Shown: positions 5,989 through 46,033, counted from the first letter of the stretch. The stretch is DNA of 64,000 nt from a virus (IMGVR_UViG_3300028558_000001:1-64000); one strand, 5' to 3'. Numbers and translations: made by a program. The notes: generated from the sequence alone by a model not told the origin.

Positions 5989-6001
5989 GGATTTATAATT
6001 A

Positions 6002-6985: not shown

Positions 6986-6994
6986 GGATTTAAT

Positions 6995-7963
6995 ATGTTA
7001 GATTTATTTCATGTACAACAATTTGGTAAAGGTGTAGACCAACAGATATTTAATGTTAATAGTGGAAGTGCATCAGGATGGGTTACTTGGATAAAACCTA
7101 GAGGAATCAATTGGGTTGATTTCTTCATGCTTGGTGGAGGCGGTGCTGGTGGTGCTGGTGCTGTTGGAGCATCATCAACAGCGGGGGGCGGCGGTGGTGG
7201 CGCTGGTGGCGCTCAATTTCATGCTATTTTTCCTGCATGGCTATTGCCTGATATTTTATATATTTCCGTTGGTTCTGGTGGATTAGGTGGTTCTGGTGCT
7301 GGTGGTGCTGGATTAATTTCATATATATCAATATATCCTGTTGCTACTGCTAATTATTTACTTGGGTCTGCATCTGGTGGTGGTGGTGGTGGGTTAGGAG
7401 GCGCTGGTACTGGTGGTACTGCTGGTGCGTCTGCTGGTTCTTCATCAATAGGAAATGCAAGTCTTTTTGGTTTGTGTATATCTGGATATACTGGTGGTGC
7501 TTCCATTAATTTAGCAGGACAAGCAGGAGTTGTTGGTGGATCAGTTAGTGCTGCTGGAAATATAACTCTACCTACTACTGGTTTAGTAGCTACTGGTGGA
7601 ACTGGCGGCGCAGGAATTGGTGTTGCTTCTTTGGGTGGCTATAGCGGAGGATCATTTAACTCTCCTGCTGGTATTTTTCCGTTTCCTTCTCAAAATGGTG
7701 GAATTGGTGGGGGACATGCTCCAGCAACGGCTGGTTTACCCGGTTCTAATGGATTTCAAGCAATGACAAAAACACTATTCTTTTATGGTGGTACTGGTGG
7801 AGGTTCTTGTGGTCAAGATGCATCGGCAGGTTCTAATGGTGGTAATGGTGGTTTTGGTTCTTATGGTTGTGGCGGTGGAGGTGGAGGCGCAGCATATACA
7901 GGAAATATAGCAGGTATTGGTGGCAATGGTGGTCCCGGTATAGTTATAGCAACAGCTTGGTAA
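6995..7963 (+). CDS. Glycine-rich adhesin-like fibre protein 3
   Basis: 322 residues, the third tandem paralogue. It shares the N-terminal KGVDQQIFN and KPRGI segments and the GGNGGPGIVIATAW C-terminus. It shares a run of about 40 identical bases with copy 2 around 7123-7165. Variable loops lie between the poly-glycine runs. A receptor-binding or fibre-tip role is inferred. Confidence 0.8.
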   Translation: MLDLFHVQQFGKGVDQQIFNVNSGSASGWVTWIKPRGINWVDFFMLGGGGAGGAGAVGASSTAGGGGGGAGGAQFHAIFPAWLLPDILYISVGSGGLGGSGAGGAGLISYISIYPVATANYLLGSASGGGGGGLGGAGTGGTAGASAGSSSIGNASLFGLCISGYTGGASINLAGQAGVVGGSVSAAGNITLPTTGLVATGGTGGAGIGVASLGGYSGGSFNSPAGIFPFPSQNGGIGGGHAPATAGLPGSNGFQAMTKTLFFYGGTGGGSCGQDASAGSNGGNGGFGSYGCGGGGGGAAYTGNIAGIGGNGGPGIVIATAW

Positions 7964-12498: not shown

Positions 12499-13011
12499 AT
12501 GACAACGATTTCAACAGTAGTTTATATGGAAAATGGATCAGTGTTAGTTACTAACACTGATCAAACACAATTAACAACAACAGATGCAGATTCAAATGTC
12601 GCATCATGGGTAGCGGCAGGGAACGTAATTACGCCTTACATTCCTCCATTAGTTGACGATTCATATCCACCAACTATTCCTAATCTAATTTCTTATGCAG
12701 CAAATAAGAGGTATACACTTGAAACTGGCGGAATAACTATAAATGGTGTATCTGTTGATACCTCTAGAGATAGTCAAGCTATGATTAATGGAGCTTATAT
12801 TTACATAACTACATCTGGAGCACCATCAATTGCCTATAAATCCGATTCAGGATGGATCACAATGGATGCTGCTACCATTAAAGCAATTGCCCTTGCTATT
12901 GGACAGCATGTACAGAACTGCTTTTTATCAGAACAAGCAATAGATATTGCTATTAATGCAGGAACAATTACAACATTCGTTCAAATTGAGTCATATAACT
13001 GGACGACATAA
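12499..13011 (+). CDS. DUF4376-containing fibre protein, second copy
   Basis: 170 residues. It joins the N-terminal module seen at 7998-8444 (ENGSVLVTNTD, TTDAD, PYIPP) to a DUF4376 module almost identical to the upstream gene, ending in SYNWTT. This is the last gene of the fibre block and its stop runs into a strong bidirectional terminator. Confidence 0.75.
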   Translation: MTTISTVVYMENGSVLVTNTDQTQLTTTDADSNVASWVAAGNVITPYIPPLVDDSYPPTIPNLISYAANKRYTLETGGITINGVSVDTSRDSQAMINGAYIYITTSGAPSIAYKSDSGWITMDAATIKAIALAIGQHVQNCFLSEQAIDIAINAGTITTFVQIESYNWTT

Positions 13012-13039
13012 AAAAGAGGGGCTAAATGCCCCTCTTTTT
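13011..13039. terminator. Bidirectional intrinsic terminator
   Basis: A 12-bp perfect stem (AAAAAGAGGGGC and its complement) with a five-base loop is flanked by A and T runs on both sides. It sits between the converging fibre block and the NAD+ salvage gene and would stop transcription from either direction. Confidence 0.9.
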
Positions 13040-14396
13040 ACTGGTTACTTAATTCACGAATATTAGCTAATGTCTGAGTCCGAAGGGTCTTACCATCAAT
13101 CCAAACATCTTCTAATAGGTTCTTGTTCTTCCCTACCTCAATTTCAGGGACGGTCTTAAAGCCGTCTTCATCCTTAATTAGAGCTAGGCGACCTTTCTTT
13201 GAAACCTTATTTGGATCAGTCTTTGGAGCCTTGTAAATATCTCCCCAAAAACCAGAAGCGTCCTTCTTGGCAGATGCTTTCATAGCAAATCCGAGAGTAT
13301 CACGATTCACGGTCTGTAGAAGTTCACCGCCCATACCGAATGTGATATTGTCAGTAGAAAAACCTTCTACATTGATGTTTTCAAGACATTCTTTAATTGA
13401 ACGCTCATTAACACCATCACCCTGAATTACACGAATACAAGATGGCAGAACCTTATAACCCTTATCATTAGTTACTGTACCAAAATCTCTGGCTAATTGT
13501 TCAATAACTTCAAGTGGAATAAGAGTAGGATCACCAGAATCAGGACGAACTACAAGAGTTGCACCAGATTCAAGAATCTTATCCTTAAGAGCATAACCCC
13601 AAATATGCTTAACTGCATACATTAGATCATATGAATCAGAAACTACCGCTACTAAGCGTCCCGGTTTAGCGAACTTGTCTAGCATATTCTCATATGCCTG
13701 AAATTCACTGTTCTTTCCCCATGACGTGATAGTGGAATGTTCGGCTGCTGGAATTGAGAAACCGGCCATTGTTTCACCATAGACTTCTCTAGCAGTTACC
13801 AGAGCGCCTAAAGTGTCAGTTCCCATAAAGTTAACTAGATGGGCTGTTCCACCAATCTTTCCTGATTCCTCAGATGAAACTCCACGGAAACCAAAGTCAT
13901 GTAGTTTGAAATTGATAAGTGAAGGATCACCAGTCTCATATAAGCTCTGTAGAATGATATTCTTAATGAACTTAGAACGAGTTGCAACCGTGATTGGATA
14001 CCAGATACGTAGAAGCATTGTTTCTACGAAAGAAGTTAACCAAGGGAAACGAGGATCAGTATTGATTACCTGTACAAGAACATTGTGATTTGGAACAATT
14101 AGTCCTTCCTTAACAGCCTGAATACGAATTGGAAGATAACCAAGAGCGGCAATATCTAACCAACCCTTGAGGTTGAACTCAAATCCATGAGAAGTTAAGA
14201 TTTCATTGGCCTGAATAACTTCTGGGATAGTTGGACACTTTAACTTATCCAGAATCATTTGAAGACCAAAGAACACTGAATAAGTGTAACTCTTATCAGA
14301 ACGTGCCTCGATGTAACTTGAAATGTATTCAGTTCCATCGGGGTACTGTAAGTAGTGACTCGCCTTATATGAATCTGCGTTTAATAGAATACTCAT
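13038..14396 (-). CDS. nadV: Nicotinamide phosphoribosyltransferase (NAMPT)
   Basis: 452 residues, the usual length for phage and bacterial NadV. The N-terminus (NADSYKASHYLQYPDGTEYISSY, the substrate loop) and motifs such as HDFGFRGVSSEESG, VVRPDSGDP, IQGDGVN and FGMGGELLQ near residue 355 are diagnostic. It makes NMN from nicotinamide and PRPP, the first step of a two-step NAD+ route whose second enzyme is encoded just upstream. The start follows AGGAAGGAG in a leader that is repeated before the partner gene. In related phages such a pair restores NAD+ drained by host defences. Confidence 0.93.
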   Translation of the reverse strand: MSILLNADSYKASHYLQYPDGTEYISSYIEARSDKSYTYSVFFGLQMILDKLKCPTIPEVIQANEILTSHGFEFNLKGWLDIAALGYLPIRIQAVKEGLIVPNHNVLVQVINTDPRFPWLTSFVETMLLRIWYPITVATRSKFIKNIILQSLYETGDPSLINFKLHDFGFRGVSSEESGKIGGTAHLVNFMGTDTLGALVTAREVYGETMAGFSIPAAEHSTITSWGKNSEFQAYENMLDKFAKPGRLVAVVSDSYDLMYAVKHIWGYALKDKILESGATLVVRPDSGDPTLIPLEVIEQLARDFGTVTNDKGYKVLPSCIRVIQGDGVNERSIKECLENINVEGFSTDNITFGMGGELLQTVNRDTLGFAMKASAKKDASGFWGDIYKAPKTDPNKVSKKGRLALIKDEDGFKTVPEIEVGKNKNLLEDVWIDGKTLRTQTLANIRELSNQ

Positions 14397-25241: not shown

Positions 25242-25305
25242 AGTGAATCTCCTTAGTATTTTTCATAACGAATCCTTTTTGTCCTTATTTCCACGTACTC
25301 GCCCT

Positions 25306-25334
25306 TTTATAAGGGGATACGAAATCCGAGTCAA
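25306..25334 (-). promoter_or_regulatory. Sigma70-type early promoter of the left-going block
   Basis: Minus strand TTGACT (25334-25329), 17-base spacer, TATAAA (25311-25306). The 15-base sequence around the -35 (GAAATCCGAGTCAAG on the plus strand) is repeated at 25672-25686. Confidence 0.8.
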
Positions 25335-25349
25335 GCGAAAAATTTCATC

Positions 25350-25478
25350 TTAAATTTCCCATATATCAGGTTCCAGAGAATAGAGAGCAATCAGACATTT
25401 CCATTCTCCCGAGCCAAGCATTTTTTCAAATACCCAAAACTCATTAGTCCATTCAAACAGTTCATATATCATATACAT
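25350..25478 (-). CDS. Possible 42-aa acidic protein
   Basis: A protein-like frame (MYMIYELFEW, then EKMLGSGEWKCL) without a Shine-Dalgarno site; its ATG overlaps a TATAAT-like sequence. It could be leaderless or spurious. Confidence 0.35.
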   Translation of the reverse strand: MYMIYELFEWTNEFWVFEKMLGSGEWKCLIALYSLEPDIWEI

Positions 25479-25502
25479 TATAGTGCGCGTCCTTTGCCTT
25501 GA

Positions 25503-25590
25503 TACTTCGTAGGTACTTCGTAGGTACTTCGTAGGTACTTCGTAGGTACTTCGTAGGTACTTCGTAGGTACTTCGTAGGTACTTCGTACT
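25503..25590 (+). repeat. 11-bp iterons (seven copies plus a partial)
   Basis: TACTTCGTAGG is repeated head-to-tail seven times from 25503 to 25579 with no mismatch, followed by TACTTCGTACT. The period is close to one helical turn, so a bound protein would sit on one DNA face. Such iterons are typical of replication origins and partition sites. Confidence 0.9.
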
Positions 25591-25611
25591 TTTGATCATA
25601 AAAATTTGGGC

Positions 25612-25744
25612 GAAAAAATTTTTAGGCGGTAGCCCTCAGTGGGTATGACGTGGCTTTTTATTATACATAGAGAAATCCGAGTCAAGTACTTTTCGGTTAA
25701 TTTTTTGGGCGGAAAAATTTTAGGCGGTAGCCCTCAGTGGGTAT
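25612..25744 (+). repeat. Direct repeat pair, about 33 bp each
   Basis: Copies at 25612-25646 and 25711-25744 share TAGCCCTCAGTGGGTAT and the A/T-rich stretch before it, about 98 bases apart. The promoter-like GAAATCCGAGTCAAG lies between them at 25672-25686. Confidence 0.85.
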
Positions 25745-25879
25745 AGTCCTCTAAATTTTTGTGAGAAATATTTTGAGTGACCTATGGTCGAGTAAAAAAT
25801 TATCGAAAATATTTTGATCGCTTTTCGGAACCACCCCCACGATCATGATTCGCGCCAAATGTCAATGGTCGAAAGTCAC

Positions 25880-25888
25880 TTATCCACA
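25880..25888 (+). promoter_or_regulatory. DnaA box (TTATCCACA)
   Basis: Exact match to the bacterial DnaA consensus. A single 9-mer could be chance, but its position inside the iteron region makes it notable. Confidence 0.5.
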
Positions 25889-27226
25889 ACTTTTTCAGCC
25901 TCAAAAAGCCGCCTCCCAAAAACCGACGACTCGCGATTGCCTAACCCATTGATTCGACTAGCTTTTCGACTCGGATTCATGCTCTCCAGCTAGGCTTTTT
26001 CGCCCTGTTTTTTACCAGCTAGAAAGCCCTTATGCGACTAAAGGCTATGCCCATTTCCTGCCCTAGGCGTCGTCTCACAAGGACAAGCCCTGACTCGCCC
26101 TAGGCTATCCCCTGACGCTGTTTAGACGGGGTTCTAGACTCGAATCTGGCTTGCCCTGACATGCCCCTATCGTGGCGAGTCCTATCGTCAGGGCATGATC
26201 TAACGCCCCTGACATGGGCTATCCCCTGACTCTCTTTCAAAGCGATTTGGAGCGGCGAGCAAGGGCGACTTTGCCCCTACTCGGCTACTATGCTAGCGGC
26301 CTATGTATTCAAGCCCTGTCCTTGCCCTTCTAATGGCGTTCTAGAGCCTATCTAACGAGTCATCCTTGACCTAGTTCTACCATGCCAATGGAATCGCCTA
26401 TCGAATCCCTTTCAAAGCCATTTCAAACGGGGCGAATCCCTATCGCTTATGCCATAACCTGTTGTTTTCTAATGGGCTTCGAATGCGCGATTCCCTTCCT
26501 ATTGCCTCGTTTTTGCCTGAATCACGATCTCCTAACCCATTGTTTTCTAACGTGTTTTTTTAGGGCTTTGGATCATACCGAATTCGGTTATTCTAATTTC
26601 AGTTCAACGGCCCCGGCGGAACGCCCCGGCCACAAGCCAAGAGGCAAATGGAAGCTAACGCGCTAAGCGCCTTGTCACTCGCAAGTAAAAACAGAGTCGC
26701 AACCTGACCTAGCAGGCAATTGCGTTAGTATTGTGCGATATAGCATAAGCACAATTTGCAACCATATGTTCTAGCGGGCTATCCCTAGCTAAACACTTGA
26801 GAGGATAGACGGCGAGTGCAGTATATCGCATTGCGCCTAGTGGCTAAGACCACAAGTCGAAAGTATCATTTCGCGGGAATAGCGCCACAAGAGTCCCTTA
26901 TAATTCGCTGATATTAGGCGAAAGGGATTGAAAGACTTAAGACGCTGAAATGGGTTAGCTAATCGCCAAAATGGCCTAAGCATTGCTTAGAATAGGGTTA
27001 GTTAATACGTGAGAAAGCTTAAAGTCTTTCCAGTATCAAGAAATGTATCTCTTGCGCGTTGCCATACGTGAATAAGCTTTGTTGTGAAACAATCCTTATA
27101 TGGCAAGCTAACTCATAAGCTTCTAATTTGTGAGTCTCCAAACTACTAACTATGCCCTAGCAAAGCCTAGCCTAATTGCCATATGGCCGGATAATCGCAA
27201 GATTGTTTGGTTATGAGGCAAGATAA

Positions 27227-27240
27227 AGCAAAGCTTTGCT
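27227..27240. repeat. 14-bp perfect palindrome
   Basis: AGCAAAGCTTTGCT reads the same on both strands. It lies in a stretch rich in AAGCTT, TAGCTT and GCAAAG words just before the first right-going gene. Confidence 0.8.
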
Positions 27241-27316
27241 AGGCTTTTCCTATGCTTAGCTTTCATTAGCTTGGCATTGGCAAAGCAAACTAAGCTTTGG
27301 AAATAGGAGAAAAACA

Positions 27317-27469: not shown

Positions 27470-27621
27470 GAAATTAGATAAGTTCTAGCATTGGCAAGAA
27501 TTAAACTTGCCAATTGTAGAGCCTATTTAGACGACTAATAAATAGTCGCTTATTGCTCTAATATAGACACTTAACGAAATTAGGAAAACATATCGTTTCC
27601 TAATTGATAGGAGCAAATAAC
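27470..27621 (+). promoter_or_regulatory. Triple-hairpin leader
   Basis: Three hairpins lie in the gap: TTGGCAAG/CTTGCCAA (about 27491-27513), CGACTA/TAGTCG (about 27532-27549) and AATTAGGAAA/TTTCCTAATT (about 27580-27607). The last ends just before the AGGAG site of the next gene. They precede the hairpin cassette array and may be variants of the same element. Confidence 0.65.
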
Positions 27622-27783
27622 ATGAAAAATGCGAGCAAAGCTAAGAAGGTTTCGCGCTCCTCTGCTTCCACTAAGAAGCAAAAGCCCCTGCCCTTCTTTG
27701 GCTTTCAAGATGAAATGGAAGAGATTCTTTCGGTTCATCTGGAAACGCGAGACTTTAACAAGTTTTGCGAGAATTATTATTGA
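27622..27783 (+). CDS. Small Lys/Ser-rich protein, 53 aa
   Basis: An ATG after ATAGGAG. The N-terminal half is basic (KNASKAKKVSRSSASTKKQK), the C-terminal half acidic (EMEEILSVHLETRDF). First gene inside the hairpin cassette array. Function unknown. Confidence 0.65.
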   Translation: MKNASKAKKVSRSSASTKKQKPLPFFGFQDEMEEILSVHLETRDFNKFCENYY

Positions 27784-27784
27784 T

Positions 27785-27825
27785 TTAGTTCTAGGCAATG
27801 AAAGACTTGCCTAGGCATGAACCAA
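27785..27825 (+). repeat. Intergenic hairpin element 1
   Basis: CTAGGCAA (27791-27798) pairs with TTGCCTAG (27807-27814), inside flanking TTAGTT and AACCAA. It stands between adjacent small genes, as do the others in the array. Confidence 0.8.
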
Positions 27826-27846
27826 TAAGACAATGGAGAAAAGAAA

Positions 27847-28041
27847 ATGTATATCTGCGAAGTGATAGACTTGGGCGACTTTTGCGCTCTCAAGTCTTCG
27901 GCGGTCTTTTTCTCTGAATCCAAAGCTTATACTTGGGGCGAAGAGAAAAAGAAAGAATTCCAAGATAAAGAGGAAGATGAATACTTCAAGAATTGTTTTG
28001 AAGTGAAAGTCTATCCTATCAACTGCCCTGAAATTGATTAG
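27847..28041 (+). CDS. Hypothetical protein, 64 aa
   Basis: Acidic middle (KKKEFQDKEEDEYFKN) and a GGAGAAAAG site. No family recognised. Lies in the cassette array. Confidence 0.7.
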   Translation: MYICEVIDLGDFCALKSSAVFFSESKAYTWGEEKKKEFQDKEEDEYFKNCFEVKVYPINCPEID

Positions 28042-28094
28042 TTTAAACCTAGGCATTAGTAGCGCAAGCTGAATAGTGCCTAGTATTGAACTAA
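28038..28094 (+). repeat. Intergenic hairpin element 2 (GCAA-capped)
   Basis: Outer arms TTAGTTTAA and TTGAACTAA enclose CTAGGCATTA/TAGTGCCTAG (T-G wobble), with an inner AGC-GCAA-GCT tetraloop hairpin. Confidence 0.85.
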
Positions 28095-28117
28095 TAAGTT
28101 CTAAGAGGAGAAAAGAA

Positions 28118-28276
28118 ATGGAAAGCAAAGCGACTAAGGAAATGAACATCCTTTACATGCTTGCGGCAATTTTCTTCTTGTCGGTCATGCTGATTTGCAT
28201 GGTCAATGAGGAAGATCGGTCGGCTTGTGAGAAAATATATTCTCACGATACTTGCGTTGCACTAATCGACAGGTAA
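28118..28276 (+). CDS. Small single-span membrane protein, 52 aa
   Basis: The start is the ATG at 28118 after GAGGAG; upstream in-frame codons run through the hairpin and are not used. It has a hydrophobic span at about residues 11-27 (LYMLAAIFFLSVMLICMV) and a Cys-containing C-terminal part. Confidence 0.7.
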   Translation: MESKATKEMNILYMLAAIFFLSVMLICMVNEEDRSACEKIYSHDTCVALIDR

Positions 28277-28279
28277 AGA

Positions 28280-28327
28280 TTAGTTTAGTTCTAGGCATAT
28301 GATTGAATATGCCTAGGCATGAACTAA
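28280..28327 (+). repeat. Intergenic hairpin element 3
   Basis: A ten-base-pair stem CTAGGCATAT/ATATGCCTAG with a six-base loop, inside TTAGTT and AACTAA. Confidence 0.85.
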
Positions 28328-28351
28328 TAAGTTCTAAGAGGAGAAAGTAAA

Positions 28352-28618
28352 ATGAGCAATTTTCGTCAGACTTCTAAGCTTACCAAAGAACAATCTTTGG
28401 CTTTGCTTAAGGTTTATCATCGCGATTTGATGCGCGTTGCATCAAATTGTTCATATGAAGTCGAAAAGAAAGTAAATCTTGGGATTGATATGAAGACTCC
28501 AAGATGGAAAAGCTTTCTTGATTGTCGGCGGAAAGTTTCCCTTGGTTATGATTGCATCATGATACAGGTTGGAAACTACTGGCTTGGCATTGAAAAGGAC
28601 GGTTATTCGCATTCGTAA
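28352..28618 (+). CDS. Hypothetical basic protein, 88 aa
   Basis: Lys-rich with several Cys and Tyr residues (KLTKEQSLALLKVYHRDL). GGAG site. Function unknown. Confidence 0.7.
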   Translation: MSNFRQTSKLTKEQSLALLKVYHRDLMRVASNCSYEVEKKVNLGIDMKTPRWKSFLDCRRKVSLGYDCIMIQVGNYWLGIEKDGYSHS

Positions 28619-28663
28619 GTTTAAACCTAGGCAATGGTCAAACGTTGCCTAGTATTGAACTTA
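28616..28663 (+). repeat. Intergenic hairpin element 4 (compensatory outer arm)
   Basis: CTAGGCAA/TTGCCTAG inside outer arms TAAGTT and AACTTA. The outer pair differs from TTAGTT/AACTAA elsewhere by matching changes on both sides, evidence for RNA pairing. Confidence 0.85.
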
Positions 28664-28689
28664 TAATGAAAGTAAAAGGAGAAAAGAAA

Positions 28690-28878
28690 ATGAAAGATGC
28701 AAATAAAACTGTTGCCGTTGCAATAGAGCCGGAAGATTTTCGGCGGCTTTCTGCAATTGCAATAAGGTTATATGACGGGAAAACTATGTCATATGACGAC
28801 CGGCGAGAATTAGCGGCACAAATCTCGGCTATTCTCGGAAGAGCGGAAGAATTACAGGCTGGCGATGTTATCTTATAA
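28690..28878 (+). CDS. Hypothetical protein, 62 aa
   Basis: The start is the ATG at 28690 after AAGGAG. Amphipathic helices (DFRRLSAIAIRLYDG and RRELAAQISAILGR). No family recognised. Confidence 0.7.
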   Translation: MKDANKTVAVAIEPEDFRRLSAIAIRLYDGKTMSYDDRRELAAQISAILGRAEELQAGDVIL

Positions 28879-28882
28879 CTGA

Positions 28883-28930
28883 TTAGTTTGGTCATAGGCT
28901 AGGATAAAACTTAGCCTATGTATGAACTAA
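28883..28930 (+). repeat. Intergenic hairpin element 5
   Basis: CATAGGCTA (28893-28901) pairs with TAGCCTATG (28912-28920), inside TTAGTT and AACTAA. Confidence 0.8.
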
Positions 28931-28949
28931 TAAGTAAAGGAGAAATAAA

Positions 28950-29159
28950 ATGGCAATGTCTATGCAGAATGCTTGGCAAGTTCTTAGTTCTATTGGTCTT
29001 TCTGGTAAGGAAGATTGGTATGAATTAAGTATTTCAAAGAAAAGCGAAGTATTTGAACTAGCAAAGAAGTGGAATTATACTTATCAATCGCCTTTAGGGC
29101 GGTCAGTTGGTTATTCTTTCTACCTTCATTTGCAGCGTAAACAAGGAAGGAAAGATTAG
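28950..29159 (+). CDS. Hypothetical protein, 69 aa
   Basis: Ser/Lys-rich with AAGGAG before ATG (WQVLSSIGLSGKEDWYELS). Function unknown. Confidence 0.7.
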   Translation: MAMSMQNAWQVLSSIGLSGKEDWYELSISKKSEVFELAKKWNYTYQSPLGRSVGYSFYLHLQRKQGRKD

Positions 29160-29170
29160 TCTGATTTGTT

Positions 29171-29205
29171 TTGCCTAATCGTGGCGCAAGCTAAAGGTTA
29201 GGCAA
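29171..29205 (+). repeat. Intergenic hairpin element 6
   Basis: TTGCCTAA pairs with TTAGGCAA; the loop carries GGCGCAAGC, so it has an inner GCAA-like hairpin as in element 2. Confidence 0.7.
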
Positions 29206-29252
29206 GGCAAACTAGATTAGAACTCTAGTTTAATAAGCAACGGAGAAAGCAA

Positions 29253-29579
29253 ATGGCTATCGAAATCAAGCATCGTCCGACCTATAAGAATGTTTTTCAT
29301 AACTATTGGTCGGCGGAAACGATTGTTAAGTTTGAAAACAATCGGGAAATGCGTATTTCGACGCATAAAACATCTTCCGGCCAAATAGTTTCGTCGGCAA
29401 ATGTTGGAATTAATGAAAATGGCGGATGGCTTTGGGCGCCATTTTCTGACTTTGGAAAAAGGTTGCTTGTCACAAAAGGAAAAGCGACTGAAAAATATGT
29501 GACAAACCAACATAATGAAGCAATCAAAGATTTGGATACTTTGATTGCTCAAGCAAGAGCTTTCTATAAAAGCGAATAA
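29253..29579 (+). CDS. Hypothetical protein, 108 aa
   Basis: Beta-rich first part (VFHNYWSAETIVKFENN) and a helical C-terminus. Site CGGAG. No family recognised. Confidence 0.7.
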   Translation: MAIEIKHRPTYKNVFHNYWSAETIVKFENNREMRISTHKTSSGQIVSSANVGINENGGWLWAPFSDFGKRLLVTKGKATEKYVTNQHNEAIKDLDTLIAQARAFYKSE

Positions 29580-29591
29580 GTCTGATTTAAC

Positions 29592-29623
29592 TTGCTCAAC
29601 TAGGTTTAGGCTTAGTTGAGCAA
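29592..29623 (+). repeat. Intergenic hairpin element 7
   Basis: An 11-bp perfect stem TTGCTCAACTA/TAGTTGAGCAA with a ten-base loop. Confidence 0.8.
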
Positions 29624-29666
29624 TGTAAACTAGATTTGTTTCTAGTGAATATAAAGGAGAAAAGAA

Positions 29667-29915
29667 ATGGCAACTCGTTATCTTGTTGCGAATATTGAAA
29701 ACATTCGCAAAGTCAAGGCTGAGTGTACAGCCGCAAGGTTTAAATGGGCTTCTGAAAAGAAGTCTGTACTTTGTGACTTGTTTACGGCGTCTGCAATTAT
29801 TGCAGTATATGACGCCTTGAACGATGAAAACAAAGCAAAGGTTGAAAGAATGGTAGCAGCCTCACCAATGCTGTTTAGCAAGGTTGCTGGGTTTTGCTTT
29901 GAACATGTGAAGTAA
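29667..29915 (+). CDS. Hypothetical helical protein, 82 aa
   Basis: Ala/Lys-rich helices (VFHVK and AVYDALNDENKAKVERM-type segments). Site AAGGAG. Function unknown. Confidence 0.7.
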   Translation: MATRYLVANIENIRKVKAECTAARFKWASEKKSVLCDLFTASAIIAVYDALNDENKAKVERMVAASPMLFSKVAGFCFEHVK

Positions 29916-29920
29916 AAGTA

Positions 29921-29968
29921 TTGGTTTGGTCAATAGCATTTAGAAATAGATGCTATTGCATGAACTAA
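29921..29968 (+). repeat. Intergenic hairpin element 8 (GAAA-capped)
   Basis: A 12-bp stem CAATAGCATTTA/TAGATGCTATTG capped by GAAA, with TTGGTT and AACTAA flanks. Confidence 0.85.
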
Positions 29969-29991
29969 TAGTAAAACAAAGGAGAAATACA

Positions 29992-30228
29992 ATGGATGCG
30001 AAGCATTTGTGCGATTATATCGTCAATACTGGCGAGTTTTATCATATCCATGTTGATATGGCGAAAGGTAAAGCTTCCATTATTGAATGGCGCAATCGTG
30101 TTTTTGTTGGTCTTTCCAAGTATAGGATAGAATTTCATGAATATCATGAAGGTCTATCAACGTCCAACATTGAAAAATGCACTGATATGCTCAAAGAATA
30201 CTATGAAGAGCATATCAAAGAGTTGTAA
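29992..30228 (+). CDS. Hypothetical protein, 78 aa
   Basis: The ATG at 29992 follows AAGGAG. Alpha/beta type (GEFYHIHVDMAKGKASIIEW). Function unknown. Confidence 0.7.
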   Translation: MDAKHLCDYIVNTGEFYHIHVDMAKGKASIIEWRNRVFVGLSKYRIEFHEYHEGLSTSNIEKCTDMLKEYYEEHIKEL

Positions 30229-30231
30229 TTG

Positions 30232-30277
30232 TTAGTTTAAACCTAGGCATTAGAAATAGTGCCTAGTATTGAACTAA
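30232..30277 (+). repeat. Intergenic hairpin element 9 (GAAA-capped)
   Basis: The clearest form: TTAGTTTAA / CTAGGCATTA / GAAA / TAGTGCCTAG / TTGAACTAA, giving about 19 base pairs with one small internal loop. Confidence 0.9.
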
Positions 30278-30301
30278 TAAGGTTCAACATGGAGAAAAGA
30301 A

Positions 30302-30511
30302 ATGGCAAATTATAACTTCATCGTTTACTTCACGCCTTATAAGTTTGAAGGTGACGATACTAATTGTTACTATAATGCCATAGGTTATGGATTCAAATGG
30401 AGATATATTCATAATATTGATCCTTACGAATATTATTATGATATAGTCTTCCGGCCTTCTGAAAGTATATTCATGGTCCCTAAAGCAATAGGCGATTGGG
30501 ATTGTGAATAA
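30302..30511 (+). CDS. Hypothetical protein with PSES..MVPK..GDWDC ending
   Basis: 69 residues, aromatic-rich. Its C-terminus (FRPSESIFMVPKAIGDWDCE) matches that of the protein at 36618-36815, so the two are distant paralogues. Function unknown. Confidence 0.75.
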   Translation: MANYNFIVYFTPYKFEGDDTNCYYNAIGYGFKWRYIHNIDPYEYYYDIVFRPSESIFMVPKAIGDWDCE

Positions 30512-30514
30512 AAA

Positions 30515-30560
30515 TTAGTTTAAGCCTAGCCATTAGAAATAGTGGCTAGTAGTGAACTAA
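30515..30560 (+). repeat. Intergenic hairpin element 10 (GAAA-capped, compensatory)
   Basis: CTAGCCATTA/TAGTGGCTAG with GAAA cap. The G-to-C change in the left arm relative to element 9 is matched by C-to-G in the right arm. Confidence 0.9.
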
Positions 30561-30585
30561 TAATGTTCAATAAAGGAGAAAGAAA

Positions 30586-30789
30586 ATGTGCAAGGTTTAC
30601 TCTTTTCCTGCTTTGCAGACTCGCAAGGTTGTTAACGAATGCTTGCATATGCAAATGAAGGAACGCGCAACCTATGAAGAAATCGCGTTTATTCTTCTTA
30701 GGTTAAATGATACTGGCGAAAAGGTTTCGCTAGATGACTTCATTGCATGTATTGAATACATGCGGGAAGCAACTAAGACTGTTCATTAG
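30586..30789 (+). CDS. Hypothetical protein, 67 aa
   Basis: Helical (NECLHMQMKERATYEEIAF), with an AAGGAG site. No family recognised. Confidence 0.7.
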   Translation: MCKVYSFPALQTRKVVNECLHMQMKERATYEEIAFILLRLNDTGEKVSLDDFIACIEYMREATKTVH

Positions 30790-30834
30790 TTTAGTTCTAG
30801 GCATATCTAAACAATATGCCTAGGCATGAACTAA
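30786..30834 (+). repeat. Intergenic hairpin element 11
   Basis: CTAGGCATAT/ATATGCCTAG inside TTAGTT and AACTAA; it overlaps the stop of the preceding gene. Confidence 0.85.
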
Positions 30835-30854
30835 TAAACAATGGAGAAAAGAAA

Positions 30855-31088
30855 ATGCGTTATGTTCAATATTATACTTCTGAAAATATGGAAGCTTTGG
30901 CAACTGATGGTTATTGTCCATTAGATGCAAGGTTTTCATTGTATAATGCAATGGCGCAAGCGCGGGAACATGGTTTGAAACTGAATAAAGACCTGAATAA
31001 AGGTTTCACTCACTTTCAAATTAGAAGGGCAGGAGGAAATAATATATTTTCCTCGTGGAGACCAGAAACGAAACTAATGAGACTGTAA
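30855..31088 (+). CDS. Hypothetical protein, 77 aa
   Basis: The ATG at 30855 follows TGGAG. Contains ALYNAMAQAREHGLKLN-like helix and RRAGGNNIF. Function unknown. Confidence 0.7.
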   Translation: MRYVQYYTSENMEALATDGYCPLDARFSLYNAMAQAREHGLKLNKDLNKGFTHFQIRRAGGNNIFSSWRPETKLMRL

Positions 31089-31138
31089 CTAGTCTTTATA
31101 AGTAGCATTAGAAATAGTGCTACTCAATAAACACTAGT
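31088..31138 (+). repeat. Intergenic hairpin element 12 (GAAA-capped)
   Basis: GTAGCATTA/TAGTGCTAC capped by GAAA, with outer ACTAGT on both sides. Confidence 0.85.
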
Positions 31139-31158
31139 AAAACAAAGGAGAAAAGAAA

Positions 31159-31440
31159 ATGCTTTATCATCTTCACTTGTCGCGACATGTAAAAGGTATG
31201 GTTAAAGGGCCGGTTCATGCGGTTCCGCGCGGTATTGGATACGTTTGCGACTATGACGAAAATGGGGATGCGGTATGGCCGGATAATAAAGCGGTAAGGG
31301 AATGCTTACCAGCTTGTTATAGAAAGGCTTTCGATAGGTCATCCCCGTCAATGTATTCTAACTCTAAAGGAATACATTTCACGCTGTACGATACGCGGAA
31401 CAAGTATATTAATACAATATATTGTATTCCGAATATCTGA
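31159..31440 (+). CDS. Hypothetical protein, 93 aa
   Basis: His/Arg-rich N-terminus (YHLHLSRHVKGMVKG), then a Pro/Tyr-rich body. Site AAGGAG. No family recognised. Confidence 0.7.
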   Translation: MLYHLHLSRHVKGMVKGPVHAVPRGIGYVCDYDENGDAVWPDNKAVRECLPACYRKAFDRSSPSMYSNSKGIHFTLYDTRNKYINTIYCIPNI

Positions 31441-31486
31441 TTAGTTTAGTGAAGTACATTGGCAACAGTGTACTTCCATGAACTAA
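31441..31486 (+). repeat. Intergenic hairpin element 13
   Basis: GAAGTACATT/AGTGTACTTC with loop GGCAAC, inside TTAGTT and AACTAA; precedes the helicase gene. Confidence 0.85.
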
Positions 31487-31510
31487 TATAGTTCACAATG
31501 GAGAGAGAAA

Positions 31511-33046
31511 ATGAAAAGAGTTTGGTCGCCACAACAGAAGGCGTTTCTTGAATTCATCATGAACTCTACTAGTTCATGTGTTCTGATCGCTGTTGCTGGC
31601 GCTGGAAAGACTACGGTTATTCTTGCCGCTTGTGAGGATATTGCTGGTTCTTCTGCAATTCTTGCCTTTTCTAAGGCTATTGCCGAAGAGCTTAAAGCAA
31701 AACTCATTGCGATGGGAATTGACTGGAAAAAGGCTTTGGCCGGAACGGTTCATTCCTTTGGTTTTTCTGCGCTTCGCAAAGCTTTCCCGAATGTCAAGGT
31801 TGATAACTATAAGGTTGCCAATATCATTGGTGACTTTGTTAAGCTTGGCATATTCACAGAAGCGACGGCGGCCTATGCAGGAACTATTGGCAAGATTGTA
31901 AGCATGGCAAAGCAACGCGCTATTGGTGTGCTGGCTCGGCTCGATGATGTTAATCAATACTATGACATTATCGAGCATTTCGACGTTCTTGCTAATGACA
32001 ACGATTATCCTGAGCATGATGTTCTGGAAAATATTGTTCAGGCTGCTATCCGTGTACTGAAATCTTCGAATAGTCAGACTTCTATCGTCGATTATGACGA
32101 TATGGTTTACTTGCCGTTGATCCATCGTTGCCGGTTTTGGCAGTATGACAATGTATTCGTTGATGAGGCGCAAGATACTAATCCTGCGCGTCGTGCATTG
32201 GTTGCTGCATTGGTCAAGAAAGGCGGTCGAGTTATTGCTGTTGGTGATCCTTCGCAAGCAATCTTCGGATTTACTGGCGCGGATGCTGACTCGCTTGACT
32301 TGATTGCTAAAGACTTCAATGCTGAAAGACTTCCTCTGACGGTAACGTATCGTTGCCCGAAGGCGGTTGTTGCTTTCGCCCATCAATGGGTTGACCATAT
32401 TCAGGCACATGAAAGTGCGCCCGAAGGTTCTGTTACTGAAACCACTAAAGAAGCTTTCCTAGAGCGGAAAGATTTGGATGGCGAAGCGGCTGTACTTTGT
32501 AGAAATACAAAGCCTATTGTCGCCCTTGCCTTCGAATTGATCCGCCGCAAGGTCGCTTGCAAGGTGGAAGGGCGCGACATTGGTAACGGGCTAGTAAAGC
32601 TTGCTACTAAATGGTCGCGTATCAAAACATTGTCTGCCCTTCATGATAAGCTTACTGATTATTATGAAAGGGAGAAAGCTAAGCTTCTGCCTAAGAAGCA
32701 GGAGAACAAGCTTCAAGACATTGAAGACAGGGTTGAAACCTTGAAGGTTATTATTGAAGAGTGCCGCTCAAAGAATCAGGACAAGGTTTCCGATCTTGTC
32801 GTGGCAATTGAAGGTATCTTTGATGATAAAGTGAAAGGTATCCTTGTTCTTTCTACCATTCACAAGTCGAAAGGACGTGAATGGAAGCGAGTGTTCTGGC
32901 TTGACCGCAAGAATACTTGCCCTTCTAAATGGGCTAGGCAAGCGTGGCAAGTAGAACAGGAAAATAACCTGTGCTATGTTGCTGCTACTCGCTCAATGTC
33001 GGAACTGATTGAAATCATTGTTCCGGCCCTGCCCAAGGCCAAGTAA
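31511..33046 (+). CDS. SF1 (UvrD/Rep-like) DNA helicase
   Basis: 511 residues with all SF1A helicase motifs in order: Q-region SPQQ near 6, Walker A GAGKTT near 30, DEAQD (motif II) near 218, GDPSQAIFG (motif III) near 248, TYRCP (IV) near 277, TIHKSKGREW (V) near 444 and YVAATRS (VI) near 492. It unwinds DNA using ATP, by analogy with T4 Dda/UvrD-type enzymes in replication start or recombination. It lies inside the cassette array, preceded by hairpin element 13. Confidence 0.92.
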   Translation: MKRVWSPQQKAFLEFIMNSTSSCVLIAVAGAGKTTVILAACEDIAGSSAILAFSKAIAEELKAKLIAMGIDWKKALAGTVHSFGFSALRKAFPNVKVDNYKVANIIGDFVKLGIFTEATAAYAGTIGKIVSMAKQRAIGVLARLDDVNQYYDIIEHFDVLANDNDYPEHDVLENIVQAAIRVLKSSNSQTSIVDYDDMVYLPLIHRCRFWQYDNVFVDEAQDTNPARRALVAALVKKGGRVIAVGDPSQAIFGFTGADADSLDLIAKDFNAERLPLTVTYRCPKAVVAFAHQWVDHIQAHESAPEGSVTETTKEAFLERKDLDGEAAVLCRNTKPIVALAFELIRRKVACKVEGRDIGNGLVKLATKWSRIKTLSALHDKLTDYYEREKAKLLPKKQENKLQDIEDRVETLKVIIEECRSKNQDKVSDLVVAIEGIFDDKVKGILVLSTIHKSKGREWKRVFWLDRKNTCPSKWARQAWQVEQENNLCYVAATRSMSELIEIIVPALPKAK

Positions 33047-33048
33047 TA

Positions 33049-33096
33049 TTGGTTTAGTCATTACCATAGGTCAAACTGTGGTAATGCATGAACTAA
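33049..33096 (+). repeat. Intergenic hairpin element 14
   Basis: CATTACCATA/TGTGGTAATG with a T-G pair, inside TTGGTT and AACTAA. Confidence 0.8.
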
Positions 33097-33112
33097 TATA
33101 ATGGAGGGTACA

Positions 33113-33334
33113 ATGCAGAAAGCAAACTTTCTTGATAAGGTCGCTTCTCTCTATCGTTGTGGTAATCGTTCTGACCATGATGAGAAATTGAATAATGCGC
33201 CAGATGAGACTTGGACTAAGCCTGAAATGGCTGGAAAGGCTTGTTGTGCATTGCTTGATGAAATGCTTCAAGCAATGATTAAGTGCAATGCCCTGACTTC
33301 GGAAGATGTTCAGGAAATGTATGATAATCTATGA
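33113..33334 (+). CDS. Hypothetical protein, 73 aa
   Basis: Starts MQKANFLDKVASLYR, after TGGAGGG. Helical, with Cys and Met residues. Function unknown. Confidence 0.7.
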   Translation: MQKANFLDKVASLYRCGNRSDHDEKLNNAPDETWTKPEMAGKACCALLDEMLQAMIKCNALTSEDVQEMYDNL

Positions 33335-33380
33335 TTAGTTAATAGTTGCTCATTAGAAATAGTGAGCAATCATGAACTAA
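33335..33380 (+). repeat. Intergenic hairpin element 15 (GAAA-capped)
   Basis: TTGCTCATTA/TAGTGAGCAA with GAAA cap, inside TTAGTT and AACTAA; a near-copy recurs at element 17. Confidence 0.85.
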
Positions 33381-33404
33381 TGTAGTTCACAGTGGAGAAA
33401 ACAA

Positions 33405-33563
33405 ATGAGCATGTCTTTTAATGAAGAGTCTGGCTATTACATTGCTAATCATAACAATGGTTATGCAATCTTTAGTTATGAAACCGAAGAAATGGTTTTC
33501 TTCCATGAAAACTTTCGGAAGGTTCTGACTCGCAAGAACAAACTCATGAAGAAGGTCAAGTAA
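33405..33563 (+). CDS. Hypothetical protein, 52 aa
   Basis: A short frame (MSMSFNEESGYYIAN, ending RKNKLMKKVK) after GTGGAG. Basic C-terminus. Immediately followed by the next gene. Confidence 0.6.
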   Translation: MSMSFNEESGYYIANHNNGYAIFSYETEEMVFFHENFRKVLTRKNKLMKKVK

Positions 33564-33564
33564 A

Positions 33565-33768
33565 ATGGTTCTTACTTCTGAAATCGTGAGAGACTATATA
33601 GTATCACTCTATGGTAATATCGAAATCTGTGATATTATTCATGGTGACGATCAAGAACCTAATCGAGACTTCTGGCAAGTCTTCTGTAATATCAATAATA
33701 CAGGTACTCGACTCGTTGTTTGGGTTGAAACCTCAGAAGACGGAGAGAAGTATATTGAGGTCGCTTGA
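33565..33768 (+). CDS. Hypothetical protein, 67 aa
   Basis: ATG two bases after the preceding stop, with AAGGTC as a weak site. Acidic alpha/beta protein (IEICDIIHGDDQEP). No family recognised. Confidence 0.65.
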   Translation: MVLTSEIVRDYIVSLYGNIEICDIIHGDDQEPNRDFWQVFCNINNTGTRLVVWVETSEDGEKYIEVA

Positions 33769-33825
33769 TTAGTTTAAGCCTAGCCATTAGTAGCGCAAGC
33801 TGTATAGTGGCTAGTAGTGAACTAA
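33769..33825 (+). repeat. Intergenic hairpin element 16 (GCAA-capped)
   Basis: CTAGCCATTA/TAGTGGCTAG with an inner AGC-GCAA-GCT hairpin, combining the arm of element 10 with the cap of element 2. Confidence 0.9.
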
Positions 33826-33845
33826 TAAAACTAAGGAGAAAGCAA

Positions 33846-34319
33846 ATGAATATTGTCAAGCAAACGGCAGAAGGTAAGACTGTCAAGCAGCTTCCTACTT
33901 ACTTTGAAGTTGTCGGCAATGACATTTATCTTGGTTCTCACAAGATCGGTACTCTCAATACTGAAATGTGGTCAACCATGACTGATCTTGTTGTTGAGAT
34001 GCTTGAGAATGATACTACTCAGCTTGAGAAAGATCATGAAGAAGCTTTGAAAGAAGCAGAAGATGATTATGCTCAGAAGCTTGAAGAGTGGGAAGATAAA
34101 GTAGAAGACCTGAAAGAAGAAGTTTCAGGTCTTGAGGCTCTCAATAGAGAGCAAGAGGAAATTCTGAATAGACTTGAACTTGCCGAAGGTGTACTTGGCA
34201 GGATCAAGGAACTTGAAGAAGAAAACGATGAATGGCGCGAGAAAGTCTCTGAGTTGTCACGTAAAGTCAGAGAGTTGACTCCTAAGCCCAAGAGAAACTA
34301 CAATAGGCGAGTTGCCTGA
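33846..34319 (+). CDS. Coiled-coil protein, 157 aa
   Basis: The ATG at 33846 follows AAGGAG. Residues 60-145 form a long Glu/Lys/Leu coiled coil (EALKEAEDDYAQKLEEWEDK and beyond), ending in a basic tail (PKPKRNYNRRVA). An oligomeric scaffold or nucleic-acid-binding adaptor is possible. Confidence 0.75.
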   Translation: MNIVKQTAEGKTVKQLPTYFEVVGNDIYLGSHKIGTLNTEMWSTMTDLVVEMLENDTTQLEKDHEEALKEAEDDYAQKLEEWEDKVEDLKEEVSGLEALNREQEEILNRLELAEGVLGRIKELEEENDEWREKVSELSRKVRELTPKPKRNYNRRVA

Positions 34320-34365
34320 TTAGTTAATAGTTGCTCATTAGAAATAGTGAGCAATCATGAACTAA
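34320..34365 (+). repeat. Intergenic hairpin element 17 (GAAA-capped)
   Basis: TTGCTCATTA/TAGTGAGCAA with GAAA cap inside TTAGTT and AACTAA, almost identical to element 15. Confidence 0.85.
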
Positions 34366-34388
34366 TAGCAATGAAAAGGAGAAAGCAA

Positions 34389-34643
34389 ATGCGTCCGTAT
34401 AAAATGACGGATAACAAAGGTCTACAGCCTGATATGACGGTTGATCTTTGGGCTAAACGTGACAATACTACATCAGGCCGGGGCAAATGGCGCTTGGCGT
34501 GGTGGAAACGTGGTAAGGATAGCTTTGTATATGCCGAAGGCGAATGCTCAGCTAACTATTTTAATACTGCCAAAGATGCATTGGCATATGGATTGCGAAG
34601 GTATGATGAAAAAGGAAAGATTTGGCCTCGCAATGAATACTGA
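34389..34643 (+). CDS. Hypothetical basic protein, 84 aa
   Basis: Starts MRPYKMTDNKGLQPDM after AAGGAG. Trp- and Lys-rich (GRGKWRLAWWKRGK). Function unknown. Confidence 0.7.
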   Translation: MRPYKMTDNKGLQPDMTVDLWAKRDNTTSGRGKWRLAWWKRGKDSFVYAEGECSANYFNTAKDALAYGLRRYDEKGKIWPRNEY

Positions 34644-34659
34644 TTAGACAGTTTTATTG

Positions 34660-34692
34660 TGTCAACTAGTTTAGTAAAAAGACTAGTTGACA
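34660..34692 (+). repeat. Intergenic hairpin element 18, promoter-linked
   Basis: TGTCAACTAGT pairs with ACTAGTTGACA over 11 bases. Its right arm supplies the -35 box of the promoter at 34687-34715. Confidence 0.8.
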
Positions 34693-34715
34693 TAAGTAAA
34701 CCTATCTGATATGAG
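34687..34715 (+). promoter_or_regulatory. Sigma70-type promoter joined to a hairpin
   Basis: TTGACA (34687-34692), 17-base spacer, TATGAG (34710-34715). The hairpin/promoter combination resembles the promoter-stem-loop cassettes described in T4-type phages. Confidence 0.55.
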
Positions 34716-34739
34716 GATTGGTTTAGTAAGGAGAAAACA

Positions 34740-34958
34740 ATGATCCAAGTTTATAGAGTGACAATAACCGTCCCTGATAATCATCCTGATAATAAGGATG
34801 GTTTCGCCCTCCGTCGTCAGTTTATTATCGGTCAGCCGGTTATAGACATTATCAGGGATAAGGTGGAAGCAAAGGGTTATGAATTCAGTTGGGCTATTGA
34901 CCATATCATGACGCCGACTGAAATCATGAACGAGATTGCCAAGGAGTTTGAACGATGA
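34740..34958 (+). CDS. Hypothetical protein, 72 aa
   Basis: Beta-rich start (IQVYRVTITVPDNHPDN). Site AAGGAG. Coupled to the next gene by ATGA. Confidence 0.7.
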   Translation: MIQVYRVTITVPDNHPDNKDGFALRRQFIIGQPVIDIIRDKVEAKGYEFSWAIDHIMTPTEIMNEIAKEFER

Positions 34959-36617: not shown

Positions 36618-36815
36618 ATGTTGGTATTTGACAATCTATACGGTCAGCCACTTAATTGTATCTGTTATATTTCTCCAACTAAACTTGGATATGAGATACA
36701 GCATAGAGGATTTAATGACTATTATAATCAGGAGGTAACAGAAGGAGATTGGCTATATTATCCTTCTGAAAGCCTCATGATGGTTCCCAAGGAAGTTGGT
36801 GATTGGGATTGTTAA
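36618..36815 (+). CDS. Hypothetical protein, paralogue of 30302-30511
   Basis: 65 residues from the ATG at 36618 (AGGGAG upstream). YPSESLMMVPKEVGDWDC matches the end of the protein at 30302-30511. Aromatic-rich; function unknown. Confidence 0.75.
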   Translation: MLVFDNLYGQPLNCICYISPTKLGYEIQHRGFNDYYNQEVTEGDWLYYPSESLMMVPKEVGDWDC

Positions 36816-36819
36816 TCAG

Positions 36820-36848
36820 TTGACAGGGTAGCTATAGGAGCATATCTT
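36820..36848 (+). promoter_or_regulatory. Sigma70-type promoter overlapping a hairpin
   Basis: TTGACA (36820-36825), 17-base spacer, TATCTT (36843-36848). The spacer and -10 lie inside a hairpin, GGTAGCTATA (36827-36836) paired with TATAGCTACC (about 36848-36857). Confidence 0.5.
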
Positions 36849-36899
36849 ATAGCTACCTCAGTGAACTTGTTATCATAGAATACTCAAAGGAGAATAAAC

Positions 36900-37941: not shown

Positions 37942-38041
37942 ACTTTGGAGGTTTGACTAATATCTAATTAGGATATGGTTGTTGGGATATAATGATCGTC
38001 AGAATAAAGAGTGTTTGATATAAAGGTTGACTAACCAGAAT

Positions 38042-38069
38042 CCATATGGTTTTATAGCTATATGGATTC
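38042..38069 (+). repeat. Intergenic hairpin
   Basis: GAATCCATAT pairs with ATATGGATTC in the 160-base gap before the next gene. It resembles the cassette hairpins in position but lacks the tetraloop cap and the TTAGTT/AACTAA arms. Confidence 0.7.
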
Positions 38070-38102
38070 GAGTGAGTTTACTTCTTATGAAAGGAAATCA
38101 AA

Positions 38103-45769: not shown

Positions 45770-45772
45770 AGA

Positions 45773-45818
45773 TTAGCTTTACAGGAGGCATCAGAAATGG
45801 TGCCTCTCATAAAGTTAA
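45773..45818 (+). repeat. Hairpin element 19 (GAAA-capped), distant copy
   Basis: TTAGCTTTA and TAAAGTTAA flank GAGGCATCA/TGGTGCCTC with a GAAA cap, the same design as the cassette array 11 kb upstream. Confidence 0.8.
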
Positions 45819-45832
45819 TATAGGAGGATATT

Positions 45833-46033
45833 ATGAAGCTTACTGATTTTTGGTTTAACCTTGGTAAAGCAGAATCCGTTTATTATGTGTTCCCTGATGG
45901 AAAGGGAGGAGAAATTCAATTCTATTGTTCTGATAGATATAATCCTCTCCAAGGAACCATGAAGCTAAACGCTGATGATGAAATTGCGGCGGCTATGCGT
46001 GGAAATTGTCTTTATATTGGCGTGAAGGAATAA
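45833..46033 (+). CDS. Hypothetical protein, 66 aa
   Basis: Strong AGGAGG site. Beta-rich (YYVFPDGKGGEIQFYCS). Preceded by hairpin element 19. Confidence 0.7.
   Translation: MKLTDFWFNLGKAESVYYVFPDGKGGEIQFYCSDRYNPLQGTMKLNADDEIAAAMRGNCLYIGVKE

What the first reader, a model, noticed from the sequence alone, without database searches (positions are those of the whole stretch)
27785..34692. A cassette array of GNRA-capped hairpins between small early genes
Eighteen intergenic spaces in 7 kb each carry a hairpin of the same design, and a distant copy lies at 45773. Outer arms TTAGTT and AACTAA enclose a 7-12-bp stem, often closed by a GAAA or GCAA tetraloop, followed by a GGAG-type ribosome binding site. 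Compensatory changes are visible directly: CTAGGCA/TGCCTAG versus CTAGCCA/TGGCTAG, and TTAGTT/AACTAA versus TAAGTT/AACTTA. This argues for a selected RNA structure rather than repeated DNA alone. Arms and caps recombine (element 16 has the arm of element 10 and the cap of element 2). T4-type phages have promoter-stem-loop (PeSL) cassettes linked to gene shuffling, but most copies here lack a clear promoter, so these may be processing, stability or translation elements and recombination sites for gene exchange.
Basis: partly seen in the sequence, partly recalled or inferred. Interest (0 to 1): 0.86.

Follow-up and report, generated by a model that had tools for sequence, protein, structure and literature searches.

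The report
RNA hairpins between phage early genes
A T4-related phage has placed about twenty copies of a covarying RNA hairpin, one in each gap between small genes of one gene block; they look like cutting sites that split a long phage message into single-gene messages, and their repeats could also let genes be swapped.

Summary
All 18 intergenic spaces longer than 40 nt between 27784 and 34739 carry a strong hairpin (mean folding z -5.5; coding controls -1.3). Further copies lie at 36813, 38024 and 45772, all on the + strand. Fourteen of 20 stem pairs have compensatory changes (0/500 shuffles). The + strand RNA is the more stable one in 20 of 21 copies (60 G-U pairs versus 11 on the other strand), so transcript RNA, not only inverted-repeat DNA, is selected. 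The typical copy is 9-10 bp, a symmetric ~2x2 mismatch, then 10-11 bp: about 22 positions, two A-form turns. The central mismatch is unpaired in 14/14 aligned copies although its bases vary. The upstream stop codon touches or overlaps the hairpin base, and a Shine-Dalgarno follows. There is no U-tract and no promoter enrichment, so these are neither terminators nor promoter-stem-loop (PeSL) cassettes as defined. Best reading: RNase III-type processing signals, like those between T7 early genes, multiplied to ~20 copies in a T4-superfamily phage related to Sinorhizobium phages. Caps and stems occur in all four combinations, so elements have exchanged parts. No Rfam match, and no homologue in the relatives searched. 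Cleavage itself is untested.

The parts
27779..27826 (+). hairpin IG1
   Evidence: weakest copy, dG -14.7, CM 57.7 bits
28037..28095 (+). hairpin IG2, long GCAA cap
   Evidence: CM 67.3 bits; 10+2x2+10 bp plus 4-bp cap stem
28279..28328 (+). hairpin IG3
   Evidence: CM 67.1 bits; 9+2x2+11 bp
28615..28664 (+). hairpin IG4 (TAAGTT/AACTTA arm variant)
   Evidence: CM 65.0 bits; 10+2x2+10 bp
28882..28931 (+). hairpin IG5
   Evidence: CM 66.8 bits; 9+2x2+11 bp
29157..29219 (+). hairpin IG6, second arm type, long GCAA cap
   Evidence: dG -32.1, z -5.4
29577..29638 (+). hairpin IG7, second arm type
   Evidence: dG -26.8, z -4.9
29920..29969 (+). hairpin IG8, GAAA cap
   Evidence: CM 55.8 bits; 9+2x2+12 bp
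30231..30278 (+). hairpin IG9, GAAA cap
   Evidence: CM 70.6 bits, best copy
30514..30561 (+). hairpin IG10, GAAA cap
   Evidence: CM 68.4 bits
30785..30835 (+). hairpin IG11
   Evidence: CM 64.1 bits
31089..31139 (+). hairpin IG12, third arm type, GAAA cap
   Evidence: CM 34.2 bits although not in the model; dG -19.0
31440..31487 (+). hairpin IG13, GCAA cap, upstream of UvrD/Rep-like helicase gene
   Evidence: CM 63.9 bits; helicase phrog_1967 E 5e-109
33048..33097 (+). hairpin IG14
   Evidence: CM 67.2 bits
33334..33381 (+). hairpin IG15, GAAA cap
   Evidence: CM 58.6 bits; sequence identical to IG18
33768..33826 (+). hairpin IG17: stem of IG10 with cap of IG2
   Evidence: CM 61.0 bits
34319..34366 (+). 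hairpin IG18, identical to IG15
   Evidence: CM 60.2 bits
34650..34703 (+). hairpin IG19, different arms: 4 bp + 2x2 + 16 bp
   Evidence: dG -23.6; z of the space -4.8
36813..36872 (+). outlying hairpin before the 181-aa ORF at 36900
   Evidence: dG -27.1 versus -19.1 on the other strand
38024..38083 (+). outlying hairpin before the ORF at 38103
   Evidence: dG -25.5 versus -16.5 on the other strand
45772..45819 (+). outlying hairpin, GAAA cap, before the 66-aa ORF at 45833
   Evidence: CM 56.9 bits; 10+2x2+10 bp
27847..34958 (+). about 20 co-directional genes separated by the hairpins, mostly 52-108 aa, plus a helicase (31511-33046) and a 157-aa coiled-coil-like ORF
   Evidence: ORFs with GGAG-type SD; no paralogy among them; nearly all without family

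Best explanation
The hairpins are intergenic RNA processing signals cut by a double-strand-specific endoribonuclease, most likely host RNase III, working like the R sites of the T7 early region. A long polycistronic transcript from upstream of 27.3 kb folds at each gene boundary into an about 22-position, two-turn stem with a central mismatch. A single cut at the mismatch would leave the upper 10-11-bp, often GNRA-capped hairpin as a 3' end on the upstream mRNA, and free the downstream mRNA with its own Shine-Dalgarno about 20 nt from the new 5' end. Shown: the structure, its + strand RNA-level conservation, the constant central mismatch, its position at every wide gene gap, the absence of promoter and terminator signals, and exchange of parts between copies. 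Inferred: transcription as one unit, the enzyme, the cut position and the effect on expression. The shared arms make the array a natural substrate for homologous recombination, so gene-plus-hairpin cassettes could be gained, lost or swapped as a by-product.
For: 14 of 20 pairs have double-sided changes, 96.4% of cells paired versus 77.2% shuffled, 0/500. Column pair 12-50 is unpaired in 14/14 copies while both columns vary. 20 of 21 copies are more stable on the + strand, and 60 of 444 pairs are G-U versus 11 of 375 on the other strand; the CM scores type-A copies 56-71 bits on + against at most 39 on -. Hairpin pairs keep mean probability 0.94 in about 290-nt context. Copies sit only in the + block 27.8-45.8 kb, at every gap over 40 nt. 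[quoted passage not shown] R1.1 is a 60-nt structure with an internal loop, from between genes 1.0 and 1.1 (PMC6121014). Folding the T7 gaps here gave 9-13-bp upper stems, some with GCAA caps, before the next gene. S. meliloti RNase III digests a 30-bp dsRNA and not a 16-bp one (PMC6121014); the host is probably alphaproteobacterial.
Against: No RNA data exist. The T7 R1.1 internal loop is asymmetric (4/5 nt); here it is mostly symmetric 2x2. E. coli RNase III sequence determinants were not scored. S. meliloti RNase III cuts R1.1 incompletely in Mg2+ and at atypical places, so host preference is uncertain. No phage RNase III is encoded, so a host enzyme must be assumed. The strong sequence identity of arms and caps exceeds what a dsRNA nuclease needs, though recent copying could explain it. 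Copies are paralogues, so the covariation and strand counts are not independent events.
Confidence: 0.5

Rival explanations
1. Uncut stability or translation elements: the hairpin stops 3' exonucleases or shields 5' ends, and separates a terminating ribosome from the next start, so each small gene is translated independently.
For: The stop codon lies within -7..+4 nt of the hairpin base and the start codon 13-34 nt after it; GNRA caps in 11 of 21.
Against: The SD is not notably open in the predicted context (mean unpaired probability 0.43). A conserved central mismatch is not needed for a stability clamp.
Confidence: 0.22
2. Binding sites for a phage or host RNA-binding regulator that controls the whole gene block at once.
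For: Conserved arm and cap sequences beyond pairing (CATTAGAAATAGTG in several copies) and fixed geometry.
Against: Stem sequence and caps vary between copies; no candidate regulator identified.
Confidence: 0.12
3. DNA repeats whose main role or origin is recombination: hairpins mark cassette borders for gene exchange, with RNA folding secondary.
For: All four cap/stem combinations exist (IG2, IG9, IG10, IG17). IG15 and IG18 are identical over 48 nt. Neighbouring genes are unrelated.
Against: G-U pairs favour the + strand RNA in 20 of 21 copies, which a DNA-level role does not predict. No tyrosine recombinase gene in the record.
Confidence: 0.1
4. T4-type PeSL cassettes: early promoter plus terminator stem-loop.
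For: T4-superfamily phage, small ORFans, modular array.
Against: Promoter-like sites at shuffle level, only one + strand site overlapping a hairpin (33781-33808, 9/12), and no terminator-like site at any array hairpin.
Confidence: 0.04

Closest known systems
T7 early-region RNase III sites (R0.3, R0.5, R1, R1.1, R1.3)
   Same: Hairpins at gene boundaries of a polycistronic block, before the next gene, a related set of copies with variable caps, 9-13-bp upper stem and internal loop
   Different: About 20 copies instead of 5 early sites, mostly symmetric 2x2 mismatch, other sequence, T4-superfamily phage; cleavage not shown
PeSL cassettes of T4-type phages (Arbiol 2010; Comeau 2014, titles seen only as citations)
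   Same: Repeated stem-loops between small genes of T4-superfamily phages with suspected modular shuffling
   Different: No promoter and no terminator tract here
T4 RegB target sites (GG*AGRAYARAA in RBSs, PMC3014915)
   Same: GGAGAAAAGAAA-like SDs follow the hairpins
   Different: RegB sites are defined by the SD sequence, not by such a hairpin, and no RegB match in this record

Membership tests
T7-type RNase III processing sites | Stable double-stranded hairpin with internal loop at gene borders of a co-directional gene block | tested here: met
   transcription as one unit itself not tested
T7-type RNase III processing sites | Cleavage by RNase III giving mono- or dicistronic mRNAs | not testable with these tools
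   Needs RNA end-mapping or in vitro cleavage
T7-type RNase III processing sites | R1.1-like asymmetric internal loop | tested here: not met
   Mostly symmetric 2x2 versus 4/5 nt in R1.1; this feature belongs to R1.1, not to all RNase III substrates
PeSL cassettes | Early promoter in each cassette | tested here: not met
   23 sigma70-like sites versus 23.4 in shuffles; phage-specific early promoters cannot be excluded
PeSL cassettes | Stem-loop acting as intrinsic terminator | tested here: not met
   No U-tract after any hairpin
Rho-independent terminators | G+C-rich stem followed by U-tract | tested here: not met
   by contrast the phage has U-tract terminators elsewhere, e.g. 12996-13047
Integron attC sites | Cassettes recombined by a tyrosine integrase | tested here: not met
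   No PF00589 match in the record
Known Rfam RNA families | Match above gathering score | tested here: not met
   0 matches in the window

The most novel reading that the evidence does not exclude
A self-propagating hairpin-cassette system without promoters: one RNA element serves as the message-cutting site and, through its repeats, as the exchange point by which a phage adds, drops and swaps small accessory genes that are expressed at once in any slot.
Probability: 0.2. Interest if true: 0.75.

Novelty: new variant of a known kind. Interest (0 to 1): 0.58.

Why it matters
If these are RNase III-type sites, a T4-superfamily phage has arrived at the T7 solution and taken it to one site per gene, which would explain how a long array of tiny genes is expressed as separate messages without a promoter each. 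A common plug-in module would also offer a direct mechanism for the rapid turnover of small phage ORFans. The set of ~20 natural variants is a ready test series for the substrate rules of alphaproteobacterial RNase III.

Tried and rejected
Terminators and sigma70 promoters: not at the hairpins. Rfam: none. Integron-like system: no tyrosine recombinase. Phage-encoded RNase III or RegB: none. Homologous arrays: CM R1 finds nothing at E<=1 in phiM12, phiN3, RHph_I1_18, BDU-MI-1, two other phages and four contigs, and one stray 19-bit hit in 50 further records. Array proteins had no relatives in viral contigs. A generic hairpin-before-RBS scan of 267 loci (3.5 Mb) found no other array; L251/L264, which carry the same sequence in opposite orientation, have two strong hairpins only. 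A looser version of that scan was too noisy to use. Distant blastn matched only the helicase gene. A terminase scan of bacterial genomes found no relative. The databases may leave out near relatives, so absence elsewhere is weak evidence.

Full report
What the window is. The window is the first 64 kb of a 176,660-bp IMG/VR virus record, G+C 37%. Its terminase is nearest to the Sinorhizobium phages phiN3, phiM7, phiM19 and phiM12 (50-51% identity), so it is a T4-superfamily phage. The helicase within the array is nearest to Bradyrhizobium phage BDU-MI-1 (50%), and one array protein (31159-31440) has a distant relative near the left end of an Autographiviridae phage of Sinorhizobium americanum. 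An alphaproteobacterial host is therefore likely. 'Early' is inferred from gene size, position after a roughly 2-kb stretch without convincing genes, and that relative; no expression data exist.

Observation. Genes were placed by ORF and GGAG-type Shine-Dalgarno. Each of the 18 spaces wider than 40 nt between 27784 and 34739 folds into a dominant hairpin. Against 200 dinucleotide shuffles the mean z is -5.5, versus -1.3 for 69 coding windows. Only gene pairs that touch or overlap (33563/33565, 34955/34958) lack one. A genome-wide scan for compact hairpins followed by SD and ORF puts most such sites in the + block between 27.8 and 45.8 kb and adds copies at 36813 and 38024 to the known 45772. 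A covariance model from 14 copies finds 15 full-length copies on the + strand at 56-71 bits, IG12 at 34 bits, a doubtful one at 27477 at 23 bits, and, apart from the reverse strands of these same sites, nothing convincing elsewhere in the record.

Anatomy. Most copies read 9-10 bp, 2x2 mismatch, 10-11 bp, loop; copies with long caps add a 4-bp GCAA-capped stem. The 22 positions equal two turns of A-form helix. The central mismatch is not a degenerate spot: column pair 12-50 is unpaired in all 14 aligned copies although both columns vary, while the stem columns as a whole pair in 96% of cells. The last base of the upstream stop codon lies between 7 nt before and 4 nt after the first hairpin base in all 18 array copies, and the start codon follows 13-34 nt after the hairpin. 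Hairpin pairs keep mean probability 0.94 in about 290 nt of context.

RNA or DNA. Covariation alone would also be expected of a maintained DNA palindrome. The strand test separates the two: folding both strands, the + strand is more stable in 20 of 21 copies, with 60 G-U pairs of 444 against 11 of 375 on the other strand. G-U pairs on one strand are A-C mismatches on the other, so the + transcript is what is conserved. Copies share ancestry, so this is not 21 independent trials; however, copies with unrelated arms (29157, 29577, 34650, 36813, 38024) show the same direction.

Exchange of parts. The stems CCTAGG and CCTAGCC each occur with the GAAA cap (IG9, IG10) and with the long GCGCAAGC cap (IG2, IG17), the four-combination sign of exchange. 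The cap around CATTAGAAATAGTG is shared by five copies with different stems or arms. IG15 and IG18 are identical. The proteins between them are not related to one another. Whether this reflects selected cassette exchange or simple copying cannot be told from one genome.

Function. No U-tract follows any hairpin and promoter-like sites are at the shuffled level, which argues against terminators and against PeSL cassettes as their authors define them (definition from my own knowledge and from cited titles; the papers were not held). The closest functional parallel is the T7 early region, where RNase III cuts a ~7,000-nt transcript at five sites (PMC4858673), one of them the R1.1 hairpin with its internal loop (PMC6121014). 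Folding the T7 gaps here shows upper stems of 9-13 bp, some with GCAA caps (which T7 gap holds which R site is from my own knowledge). The present elements share that plan and position. A two-turn helix with an internal mismatch suits a dsRNA nuclease expected to make one cut; S. meliloti RNase III digested a 30-bp duplex but not a 16-bp one. Cleavage remains an inference, held at 0.5. Rivals are uncut stability or translation elements, a regulator's binding sites, and recombination repeats.

Loose end. In 9 of 21 copies the 3' outer arm can instead pair with a complement a few bases downstream (5 bp or more; 2.0 expected), with total pairing 94 against 69.5 expected and a shuffle maximum of 82. 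After a cut in the internal loop this would give the downstream mRNA a small 5' hairpin. It is unexplained, and copies are not independent.

Novelty. No Rfam family matches and no homologous array was found, though near relatives may be left out of the collections. I file it as a new variant of a known kind, RNase III-like intergenic processing hairpins, with membership open until cleavage is tested.

Noticed in passing
window 25300-27300: About 2 kb without convincing genes before the array, with an 11-bp tandem repeat TACTTCGTAGG (7.8 copies, 25503-25588) and several G+C-rich inverted repeats; possibly a promoter or origin region.
   Followed up: partly
window 27475-27529: A further hairpin (TTGGCAAG..CTTGCCAA with outer arms) in the space before the array; weak CM score 23 bits.
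   Followed up: no
window 29219-29250, 30278-30300, 31487-31500, 33381-33395: Alternative pairing of the 3' outer arm with a downstream complement (e.g. TGAACTA-ATA-TAGTTCA), in 9 of 21 copies.
   Followed up: partly
window 13038-14396 (-): Nicotinamide phosphoribosyltransferase gene (phrog_448, E 2e-147), suggesting phage NAD metabolism.
   Followed up: no
L251 565-622 and 1262-1322 (and L264): An unrelated phage contig has two strong hairpins just before Shine-Dalgarno sites of small genes near one end; possibly another set of processing sites.
   Followed up: no
window 5200-7900: Long glycine-rich coding stretches, probably tail-fibre or adhesin-like proteins.
   Followed up: no
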